Assembly (NCBI RefSeq): GCF_013466985.1
Contig: NZ_CP059164.1
Coordinates: 1,497,001 to 1,561,000, forward strand
DNA length: 64,000 bases
Source of the DNA: Nocardioides ungokensis
GTDB taxonomy: Bacteria; Actinomycetota; Actinomycetes; Propionibacteriales; Nocardioidaceae
Direction of reading: 5' to 3'
A program made the position numbers and the translations under genes. This document shows positions 50,898 to 53,811 of the stretch, piece by piece. Positions within the stretch are counted from its first letter, which is position 1, and every line of letters begins with the position of its first letter. The notes beneath the pieces were generated by a model, which searched no databases, was not told where the DNA came from, and saw nothing but the letters and a program-made list of their open reading frames with translations.

Positions 50898-52503
50898 CTA
50901 CCCGGCGTACCGGCGTACGTGCTCGACGACCGCCTCCTCGATCTGCTCCAAGGTCGCGGCCTCGGGCAGGTGCACCCGGCCGTCGAGCGGCACGAACGTC
51001 GCGTGGGGGAGGCCCGCGGCGAGGTCCTGGCTGCCGCGGACGGGGATCAGCGGGTCCCTGCTGTAGTGGAGCACCAGCGCCGGCGCCGTCACGGACGGGA
51101 GCAGGTCGCTCACGTCGTGGTCGTACATCGAGAGCAGGTAGTCGGCGGCGACGTCCGCTGTGGCGGAGTCCCGGAAGACCTTGGCCAGGTGCCAGGCGGC
51201 GTCGTCGCAGGCACCGGGGCGGTAGAGGTCGGCGAAGATCTTCGAGCCCATGCTTCCAGTGGCTGCGGACGATGTCGACCATCATCTCCTTCATGTGCTG
51301 GTCCTTGAAGGTCGACGGCGCGTCCGCGAAGGTGCCGAACAGCACCAGGGAGCTCACCCACTCGGGCCGCCGGGCGGCGACCGTGACAGCGATCGGACGG
51401 CCGCCGACATCGCGAGCAGGGACACGGTGGCCCGACCACCCGGACGATCTCCGTCAGCTCCTCGACGCTGGCCTCGCGGCCGTAGTCCCGCACCGGACCG
51501 GGGGAGAGGCCGGTGCCTGCGCGGTCGTAGAGGGTCGTCGACAACGTCCCGGCCAGCCGCTCCAGCAGCGAGGAACGGGGGTCACGCCCCGACGCGACCA
51601 CGTCCAGGCTGGACACCCAGCCGAGCACCACCACGACGGGCGGTCCGGTGCCGGTGGTTCCGTAGGCCAGCACGTTGCCACGCTCGGTGCGCAGGTAGCG
51701 CACCTGCAGCCCAGGGAGGCCCGGGGGTGGGGTGCGCGGTTTCGTGAGCGCGGGGTGCGTCTCGACGACGGGGGTCCCGCAGGAGCTCGACCTGCAGGTC
51801 CTGCATGGCGCGCGACGGCTCCAGCCCGAGCCTCCTCGCCGACGAACGCGCGGTACTGCTGGTACTGGTCCAGGGCGTCGGCCGTGCGCCCCGCCGCCTG
51901 CAGCGCTCGCATGAGCGTGGCCCGGGCAGCCTCGTTCAGCGGGTGCGCGTGGGTGAAGGGCTGCAGCAGGTGGATCGCCTCGGCCGGGTCGCCGGCCGCG
52001 AGCAGGGCCTCGCCCAGCCGTTCCGTGGCGGTGAGCCGCATCTCCTCGAGCCGTACGGCGTCGACCCGGGCGATGTCGGAGTCCGCGAACCCGCCGTACG
52101 CCGGGCCCCGCCACAGCCCGAGTGCCCTCGCCAACGTGGCCGCCGCCTGCTCGGGCGGCTCGTCGCGCGCCCGCTGCACCAGCTCGGCGAAGACCGACGC
52201 GTCGAGGTCTCCGGGCTCGAGGACCAGCTGGTAGCCGTGGTCGCGGGTGCGCAGGAGGTGCCGGTCGCTCACCGCGCCGAGGTTCGCCCGCAGCTTGAAC
52301 ACCGCGCTGTGCAGGGAGGGGGCGGGCCGGTCCGGCGGCTCGTCCTCGCCCCAGAGCAGGTCGGTCAGCAGGTCCACGCTGACCACCTCGCCCACACGGG
52401 CGGCCAGGGCCGCGAGCAGCGCCTGGCGCCGGTGTCCGGGCAGTGCGGACACCGCGCCGCCTGCGTCCAGCAGCGTCACCGGCCCCAGCACTCCGACGAG
52501 CAC
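50898..52503 (-). CDS. SARP/BTAD transcription factor fused to alpha/beta hydrolase (about five frameshifts)
   Basis: About 535 residues if repaired. Residues 1-90 are an OmpR-like winged helix of SARP type (MLVGVLGPVTLLDAGGAVSA, then LLTDLLWGEDEPPDRPAPSL, LRTRDHGYQLVLEPGD). A BTAD helical domain follows (about 95-240: FAELVQRARDEPPEQAAATL, LMRALQAAGRTADALDQYQQ). Then comes an alpha/beta hydrolase: NVLAYGTTGTGPPVVVVLGW, TTLYDRAGTGLSPGPVRDYG, SLLAMSAA with the presumed nucleophile Ser, VSSLVLFGTFADAPS, then VTAPALVLHYSRDPLIPV and a final DGRVHLPEAAT with the His. Shifts fall near 51828, 51775, 51435, 51390 and 51245. The number of breaks is high, but all domains are intact, so sequence error is more likely than decay. 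Such fusions could couple ligand binding by the hydrolase to gene activation. Confidence 0.75.
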
Positions 52504-52507
52504 GTCT

Positions 52508-53143
52508 CTAGTGTGCCGTCCCCGCGCAGGGCGCGGTCCAGACCGGTTCCGAGGAGTCCGGGGTGCTGCGCCGCGCGAGCGCCACGATCGCGTGGCGGTC
52601 GACGCGCGGGGGGTCGAGCAGGCGGAGCGGCGCGTTCCCCTCCAGGACCCCGCCCTGGAAGGACGTCTTGATGCCGAGCCTGGACAGCAGCCGCAGGGAG
52701 GGCATGTTCTGGGCGTGCACCGTCGCTGCCACGCGGCGGACCCCGTTGACGGCGGCCACGGTGGTGACCGCGTCCAGCAGGGCGAGGCCCAGGCCGCGGC
52801 GCTGGTGCTCGTCGACGACCTCGAGCGCGAGCTCAGCGGTGCACGGGTCCTCGTCGGTCCGGACGTAGCGAGCGATCCCGGCCGGGCGGTCGTCGACAGA
52901 GGCCAGCCAGGCGACGTGCATCAAACCGTCGGTCGCGGCGAGCGCCCGGACGAACGCCCCCGTCAGTCGGGGCGCCCCGACCAGGTAGCGGTTGGCGCGG
53001 GACGCCGGGGACATCCCCGCGAACACGTCCAGCAAGGGACCGGTCTCGCCGTCCTGGAGGGGCCGGAGCAGCGCCGTACCTCCGTCGGCGAGTGGGACTC
53101 GGACCGACGCCGGTCGGCGCCGGGCCAGAGGAAGCACGGTCAT
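52508..53143 (-). CDS. GNAT-family N-acetyltransferase
   Basis: 211 residues from the ATG at 53143 (AGGAGACC upstream). The acetyl-CoA-binding motif is ELALEVVDEHQRRGLGLALL (Arg/Gln-x-x-Gly-x-Gly/Ala), with the preceding strand RPAGIARYVRTDEDP and the following RRVAATVHAQNMPSLRLLSR. The N-terminal part (TALLRPLQDGETGPLLDVFA) matches the group related to the acetyltransferase domains of bacterial protein lysine acetyltransferases. It starts five bases before the SARP-hydrolase gene on the same strand, so the two may be cotranscribed. Confidence 0.85.
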   Translation of the reverse strand: MTVLPLARRRPASVRVPLADGGTALLRPLQDGETGPLLDVFAGMSPASRANRYLVGAPRLTGAFVRALAATDGLMHVAWLASVDDRPAGIARYVRTDEDPCTAELALEVVDEHQRRGLGLALLDAVTTVAAVNGVRRVAATVHAQNMPSLRLLSRLGIKTSFQGGVLEGNAPLRLLDPPRVDRHAIVALARRSTPDSSEPVWTAPCAGTAH

Positions 53144-53316
53144 CGTGGTCTCCTGAGGTGAGTGGGGAGCGGACCTCCTCACCGTGCGCGGGACGCCTTC
53201 CCCGGCGCTTCCCGCCGGCTTCCTGTCGGCCGGATTCATCCTTGTCGGGTGACGCGGACGACCGCTCACGCGACGACGCTCGGGGGAGACCTACAGCCTC
53301 GACATCGGAGCGAACC

Positions 53317-53811
53317 ATGAGCAGCAACCAGCTTGACCCCAGGAGCATGGCCGACGTCCAGACCGTCAGCCACTTCGCCGCACCGGGCTCGCCGGAGTAC
53401 GAGCACGACTACCGGATGCGGCAGTCGGCTTGGGTGGCCTGGGTGAACTTCGCCGGGGTGATGCTCGTCCTCCTCGGCTCCTTCCACGTCATCGAGGGCC
53501 TGGTCGCGCTGTTCCGCGACGAGGTGTTCGTCGTCGGGCGGCAGGGGCTGGTCCTCAACGTCGACTACACCGCGTGGGGTTGGATGCACGTCGTGTTCGG
53601 CGTGCTCACCGTCCTGGTCGGCTCGTGCCTGCTCGCCGGGCAGATGTGGGCCCGGATCGTCGCGGTGATCGTGGCGGGCCTGAGCGCGCTCGCCAACGTC
53701 GCCTTCCTGCCCGCCTACCCGGTCCTGTCGGCCGTGATGATCGCGGTTGACATCATCGTGATCTGGGCGATCACCATCCACGGCGGCGAGCTGCGCGAAC
53801 CGAAGGCCTGA
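53317..53811 (+). CDS. DUF7144-type membrane protein
   Basis: 164 residues from the ATG at 53317 (GGAGCGAACC). A 35-residue polar start is followed by four helices: WVNFAGVMLVLLGSFHVIEG, WGWMHVVFGVLTVLVGSCLL, MWARIVAVIVAGLSALANVA and SAVMIAVDIIVIWAITIHGG. The Trp-rich helix starts are typical of the small four-helix membrane family that actinobacteria encode in many copies. Function unknown. Its last 97 bases overlap the open frame of the convergent cation ATPase. Confidence 0.8.
   Translation: MSSNQLDPRSMADVQTVSHFAAPGSPEYEHDYRMRQSAWVAWVNFAGVMLVLLGSFHVIEGLVALFRDEVFVVGRQGLVLNVDYTAWGWMHVVFGVLTVLVGSCLLAGQMWARIVAVIVAGLSALANVAFLPAYPVLSAVMIAVDIIVIWAITIHGGELREPKA

What the first reader, a model, noticed from the sequence alone, without database searches (positions are those of the whole stretch)
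50898..52503. SARP/BTAD regulator fused to an alpha/beta hydrolase
A winged-helix plus BTAD module is followed in the same gene by a complete hydrolase fold with recognisable strand, nucleophile and His regions. In the related RsbQ/KAI2/D14 group, hydrolases serve as ligand receptors. Here the receptor-like part would be fused directly to a DNA-binding domain, a possible one-component sensor. The neighbouring GNAT gene on the same strand and the convergent two-component system are candidates for linked functions.
Basis: partly seen in the sequence, partly recalled or inferred. Interest (0 to 1): 0.55.

Follow-up and report, generated by a model that had tools for sequence, protein, structure and literature searches.

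The report
Gene switch with built-in hydrolase sensor
An actinobacterium carries a gene regulator fused to an enzyme-like domain that may sense a small molecule; this copy is broken in the sequence record, but relatives, a conserved partner gene and a repeated DNA element in front of it point to a real, uncharacterised switch.

Summary
On the minus strand, 52503-50898, an OmpR-type winged helix plus BTAD leads into an alpha/beta hydrolase domain spread over several frames (five frame changes). Four relatives carry the fusion in one open frame. This assembly shows frame breaks elsewhere too, so sequencing error is likely, though five in 1.6 kb is a local excess. The hydrolase keeps its Ser-Asp-His residues and changes more slowly than the DNA-binding half. 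Its relatives are fused to LuxR helices, cyclases or winged helices, so it looks like an interchangeable input domain. It is nearer to PcaD and esterases than to RsbQ or D14.

New here: (1) the upstream GNAT gene pairs with it in 4 of 4 close loci; the two-component system was not found beside five relatives. (2) Direct repeats of GGGGAAG at 11-bp spacing, the classical SARP operator layout, precede the pair. (3) The same repeat precedes an OsmC-flavoprotein-SARP operon elsewhere in this genome and in relatives. I propose a one-component SARP switch belonging to that regulon. Whether it binds the site or is only a target, its ligand, and its catalysis are untested. New variant of a known kind.

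The parts
51838..52503 (-). N-terminal OmpR-type winged helix plus BTAD (frame piece 1)
   Evidence: Pfam Trans_reg_C 2.9e-7, BTAD 7.3e-29; GTG start 4 nt after the GNAT stop
51434..51837 (-). end of BTAD, linker and first half of the hydrolase, in two further frames
   Evidence: frame translations; aligned to L155, L104, L105; third-position GC 0.92-1.00 in the pieces
51255..51433 (-). nucleophile region (readable LLAMSA) and following helix, in two further frames
   Evidence: intact close relatives read LAMSAAGP
50898..51254 (-). C-terminal hydrolase piece with the acid (HYSRD) and His (GRVHLP) regions, to the stop
   Evidence: open frame 50898-51251; 66% identical to the G255 hydrolase over residues 152-270; Asp and His conserved
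52508..53143 (-). GNAT acetyltransferase gene, first gene of the conserved pair (ORF open to 53269; ATG at 53143 assumed)
   Evidence: Acetyltransf_1 7.2e-12; nearest solved relatives are Pat-type lysine acetyltransferases, 4ava 1e-16; directly upstream in L104, L105, L155
53197..53225 (-). candidate SARP operator: three heptamers (CAGGAAG, CGGGAAG, GGGGAAG) at 11-bp spacing, 53-82 nt before the assumed GNAT ATG
   Evidence: dinucleotide shuffles reach the best pair score in 1 of 2000; one of 5 sites with at most one mismatch in the 4.6-Mb genome

Best explanation
The gene encodes a one-component regulator: an OmpR-type winged helix and BTAD (DNA binding and activation) joined to an alpha/beta hydrolase domain that binds, and perhaps slowly turns over, a small acyl- or lactone-type molecule. 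It is made from a two-gene unit with a GNAT acetyltransferase. The protein, alone or with the SARP-LAL regulator of the same regulon, acts at 11-bp-spaced GGGGAAG repeats in front of its own unit and of an OsmC-flavoprotein-SARP-LAL operon elsewhere in the genome. Shown by sequence: the fusion in relatives, conserved triad, conserved gene pair, shared repeat element. Inferred: the frame breaks here are sequencing errors; the hydrolase is the input domain; this protein binds the repeat. Not known: ligand, direction of regulation, catalysis.
For: Fusion in one open frame in L036, L105, L106 and L155. Same hydrolase family fused to GerE (31), cyclase (13) or Trans_reg_C (8, of which 5 with BTAD) in 52 of 55 relatives examined (3 without an output match). 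Ser 51, Asp 54, His 53 of 55. Hydrolase dN 0.16-0.27 against 0.30-0.35 for the DNA-binding half in window comparisons. GNAT directly upstream in 4 of 4 close loci, overlapping ATGA in L105. Repeats in front of all four units and of OsmC/MaoC/FADox genes. Motif-blind check: 8 of 10 GNAT-anchored loci hold an 11-bp pair scoring 12 or more of 14 and 5 of 10 score 13 or more; other spacings 8-14 give none at 13 or more; 0 of 13 background stretches. Layout agrees with SARP sites in a review (PMC10972967, passages).
Against: The gene is not open as sequenced, and five breaks in 1.6 kb exceed the genome's apparent average (9 in the 64-kb window, 9 in 100 kb elsewhere). The repeat also occurs in genomes where the family search showed no close SARP-hydrolase (G021, G045, G264), so the SARP-LAL may be its reader. 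Exact repeats are not above control genus-wide: 12 against 9, 9 of the 12 away from these genes. Only 4 of 11 OsmC-anchored loci carry the repeat. The more distant fusions L036 and L106 lack GNAT and repeat. No structure, ligand or binding data.
Confidence: 0.5

Rival explanations
1. In this strain the gene is a decaying pseudogene; the frame breaks are real, and only relatives have a working switch.
For: Five frame changes in 1.6 kb, more than the apparent average of the assembly.
Against: No stop codon inside the frame pieces, third-position GC 0.92-1.00 in all six, and window dN no higher than between relatives in the hydrolase (0.16-0.27 against 0.24-0.26). Frame breaks also occur elsewhere in the assembly (9 without nearby stop in 100 kb of 5 samples; 0 in 77 kb of G024).
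Confidence: 0.2
2. The SARP-LAL of the OsmC operon is the only reader of the GGGGAAG repeat; the SARP-hydrolase is merely one of its targets and acts on other DNA.
For: The repeat lies before MaoC/OsmC in genomes without a close SARP-hydrolase hit (G021, G045, G264), and SARP-LAL regulators are known to bind three heptamers with 4-nt spacers (PimR; PMC10972967, passage).
Against: Self-regulation through the unit's own promoter is common for such regulators (recalled); the two DNA-binding helices share an LHxA stretch in a small alignment (weak, one row of it was misframed).
Confidence: 0.3
3. The hydrolase is an ordinary enzyme that happens to be fused to a regulator; substrate turnover, not sensing, is its role.
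For: Triad conserved in 51-54 of 55; nearest solved proteins are esterases and PcaD.
Against: 52 of 55 relatives examined carry a DNA-binding or cyclase domain; four lack the Ser; the close group has Ala in place of both Gly of the usual GxSxG elbow (AMSAA).
Confidence: 0.15

Closest known systems
Small SARP regulators (ActII-ORF4, RedD type)
   Same: OmpR-type winged helix plus BTAD; 11-bp-spaced heptamer repeats in front of the gene unit
   Different: carries a C-terminal alpha/beta hydrolase; no NB-ARC, AAA or TPR architecture as in medium and large SARPs; the review passages read list no hydrolase type
LipJ (Rv1900c), bifunctional lipase/adenylate cyclase
   Same: related hydrolase as presumed input domain of a signalling protein (NF058673, 37.8-70.2 bits on four BTAD fusions)
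   Different: far below the family cut-off of 800 bits; output is DNA binding, not a cyclase; order of domains reversed
Alpha/beta hydrolase-LuxR (GerE) fusions of the same actinobacteria
   Same: same hydrolase family with a DNA-binding output (31 of 55)
   Different: C-terminal LuxR helix instead of N-terminal winged helix plus BTAD
RsbQ / KAI2 / D14 receptor hydrolases
   Same: fold and Ser-Asp-His triad; the idea of a hydrolase used as receptor
   Different: only superfamily-level similarity; nearer to PcaD and esterases

Membership tests
SARP | N-terminal OmpR-type winged helix followed by BTAD | tested here: met
   Pfam Trans_reg_C 2.9e-7 and BTAD 7.3e-29
SARP | heptameric direct repeats, classically 11 bp apart, at target promoters | tested here: met
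   sequence only: three heptamers at 53197-53225 and pairs in L104, L105, L155; binding not tested
SARP | activates transcription of its targets | not testable with these tools
   needs bench work
LipJ-type hydrolase-cyclase | C-terminal class III cyclase | tested here: not met
   no Guanylate_cyc in the X-joined window reading or in L036 and L037 nor in L155
LipJ-type hydrolase-cyclase | NCBIfam NF058673 score at or above cut-off | tested here: not met
   61.0, 47.1, 37.8 and 70.2 bits against 800
RsbQ/KAI2/D14 receptor hydrolases | Ser-Asp-His triad | tested here: met
   conserved columns in relatives; in the window the Ser region lies at a frame break
RsbQ/KAI2/D14 receptor hydrolases | closest sequence relatives are that group | tested here: not met
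   RsbQ 37th and D14 45th row behind PcaD and esterases
RsbQ/KAI2/D14 receptor hydrolases | four-helix lid forming the ligand pocket | not tested

The most novel reading that the evidence does not exclude
A self-contained signalling pair: the GNAT makes an acylated small molecule (or acetylates the regulator), and the regulator's hydrolase domain both perceives that molecule and slowly destroys it, so signal maker, receptor and signal terminator are encoded by two adjacent genes that control an oxidative-metabolism regulon through the GGGGAAG repeats.
Probability: 0.1. Interest if true: 0.8.

Novelty: new variant of a known kind. Interest (0 to 1): 0.5.

Why it matters
Hydrolase domains are fused to regulators and cyclases across these actinobacteria, yet I found no described ligand for this group in the papers searched. 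Here one such fusion comes with a conserved partner gene, a predicted operator and a predicted second target operon, so ligand, operator and output can be tested directly: bind the repeat in vitro, then look for compounds that alter binding, starting from substrates of the linked flavoproteins and the GNAT. It would also extend SARPs, mostly studied as antibiotic-cluster activators, to a metabolite-sensing form.

Tried and rejected
Rejected: kinship to RsbQ/KAI2/D14 beyond the superfamily. Rejected: the two-component system as a conserved partner (no hits in five loci). Rejected as too general: exact GGGGAAG repeats as a genus-wide signature (12 against 9 control hits in 215 genomes). Led nowhere: plasmid collection (4 records, at most 24% of the query covered); the genome-contig scan with L036's protein (29 loci, no clear whole-length fusion); literature on SARP-hydrolase fusions (no paper, listings only) and on OsmC-MaoC-SARP clusters (no paper). 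The nucleotide-cyclase survey PMC2447327 is held without its main text; only a reference-list passage was seen. Papers seen as passages only: PMC10972967, PMC8007912. One search's alignment contains one misframed row (G274), so I give it little weight. Rows dropped: the loci without a hydrolase hit, duplicates by identical last 200 residues, and the window's own fragment L119, leaving 55 of 56 kept references. The 55 are mostly the best-scoring loci of the searches, not an even sample. No structure was predicted or searched.

Full report
What is there. The window is 64 kb of a single-contig 4.62-Mb genome given as 91.66% complete. On the minus strand the finding's gene starts with GTG at 52503. 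Its first 665 bases or so encode an OmpR-type winged helix and a BTAD. The reading then moves through five more frame pieces to the stop at 50898. Read in order with X at the joins, it matches a gene of another genome of the same genus (G024, L036) over residues 3-533 at E 3.9e-87, 43% identity, in one open frame.

Are the breaks real? A codon-usage Viterbi scan found 9 frame changes without a nearby stop in the 64-kb window (one in this gene, one in the neighbouring kinase) and 9 in 100 kb from five other places of the same genome, but 0 in 77 kb of G024. The scan passes other breaks of this gene through its non-coding state, so its counts are low estimates. All six pieces keep third-position GC of 0.92-1.00 and have no internal stop, and the window's hydrolase is not evolving faster than its relatives' (dN 0.16-0.27 against 0.24-0.26). 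I take sequencing error as most likely, but five in 1.6 kb is a local excess and decay is not excluded. G255's orthologue also shows a frame change near the start of its winged helix.

Relatives. Among 341 genomes of the family, the close hydrolase occurs in 4: G000 itself, G255, G274 and G470, with G024 next at 46% (top candidates per genome only). Further BTAD-hydrolase fusions: G414 among 391 genomes of the order and G001 (L037, a different hydrolase subtype). Window identities to the close three are 65-75% in the hydrolase and 56-63% in the DNA-binding half. In 55 related hydrolase proteins drawn mostly from the best matches, Pfam finds GerE in 31, a cyclase in 13 and Trans_reg_C in 8, five of these with BTAD; three of ten checked singly have no output match and three are winged helix plus hydrolase without BTAD. 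So the hydrolase is a mobile input module.

Catalytic residues. Ser is kept in 51, Asp in 54 and His in 53 of 55. The close group (L155, L104, L105) has the elbow A-M-S-A-A where G-x-S-x-G is usual, G024 has G-S-S-A-A; in the window LLAMSA is readable up to a frame break. Four of the 55 lack the Ser (L149, L152, L153, L154). This allows either slow turnover or a receptor role. By profile the nearest solved proteins are a carboxylesterase and PcaD, with RsbQ and D14 far lower.

The GNAT partner. The GNAT gene ends 4 nt before the fusion's start. The same order holds in L104, L105 (overlapping ATGA) and L155, that is 4 of 4 close loci from four genera. It is related to Pat-type lysine acetyltransferases (4ava 1e-16; Pat model 68.1 bits against a cut-off of 460). 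Distant fusions L036, L037 and L106 lack it. Thirteen other genomes of the family hold a GNAT at 46-58% identity; in the ten of these that I fetched the fusion is absent, but 7 of 10 have OsmC and FAD-oxidoreductase genes beside the GNAT, and 8 of 10 a match to the large SARP.

The repeat and the regulon. In front of the GNAT in the window stand CAGGAAG, CGGGAAG and GGGGAAG with 4-nt spacers (53197-53225). The other three loci have pairs at 11 bp. Dinucleotide shuffles reach the observed pair score in 1, 1, 4 and 0 of 2000 for window, G274, G470 and G255; the motif was taken from these same regions, so this alone is circular. Away from them: with at most one mismatch the pattern occurs 5 times in this genome (control 2), three of the five at this system, namely once here and twice before an OsmC-FAD-oxidoreductase-second flavoprotein-SARP-LAL operon at C1:2234387-2234427. 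Over seven chosen genomes it is 22 hits against 4 for the control, 12 of the 22 at these genes, and all 4 exact matches are there. In ten GNAT-anchored loci fetched without regard to the motif, 8 hold a pair of score 12 or more and 5 of score 13 or more at 11 bp; spacings 8, 9, 10, 12, 13 and 14 give 1, 4, 3, 5, 0 and 1 at 12 or more and none at 13 or more; 13 background stretches give none. Against: genus-wide exact matches are 12 against 9 for the control and only 3 of 12 lie at these genes; only 4 of 11 OsmC-anchored loci carry the repeat; L173 and L174 have none. All four genomes with the close fusion have the OsmC genes, which reach E 1e-50 in only 9 of 96 relatives. A review describes SARP sites as heptameric direct repeats, classically 11 bp, with three repeats and 4-nt spacers for the SARP-LAL PimR (PMC10972967, passages). 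Names such as SARP-LAL (AAA_16 plus BTAD) and 'second flavoprotein' (my label from its N-terminal sequence, not domain-tested) are mine.

Mechanism. Most likely the protein is a one-component SARP whose hydrolase domain binds a small molecule, encoded with a GNAT, under control of the repeat, and part of the OsmC-flavoprotein regulon. Because the repeat persists in genomes with no close fusion found (G021, G045, G264), the SARP-LAL may be its main reader and the fusion a target, a co-reader, or both. Which of these holds is the main open point and is directly testable.

Verdict. A real, rare architecture; a new variant of known SARP and hydrolase-effector kinds.

Noticed in passing
window, e.g. 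30669, 33356, 37178, 39249, 45477, 49492, 60588, 63501: Frame changes without a nearby stop in other genes of the window; the assembly seems to carry indel errors (9 in the window counting 51250, 9 in 100 kb elsewhere, 0 in 77 kb of G024).
   Followed up: partly
L183 6388-12807 (G000:C1:2234387 onward): OsmC, FAD oxidoreductase, second flavoprotein and SARP-LAL operon of the same genome with up to four overlapping 11-bp GGGGAAG-type pairs in front; MaoC gene not found there.
   Followed up: yes
L155 4460-7388: In G470 the fusion gene is flanked by a MerR-DICT regulator and a phytoene/squalene synthase gene.
   Followed up: no
L036 9078-9719 and L106 9186-10244: Methyltransferase-like genes beside two of the more distant BTAD-hydrolase fusions.
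   Followed up: no
L037 6205-7878: A second BTAD-hydrolase subtype in G001 whose middle hydrolase stretch looks out of frame.
   Followed up: no
L140, L145, L148: Winged helix plus hydrolase without BTAD, a simpler one-component form in other actinobacteria.
   Followed up: no
window 53317-53811 (+): Small predicted membrane-type protein gene divergent from the GNAT unit; the repeat lies in the shared intergenic stretch. Start at 53317 is my reading.
   Followed up: no
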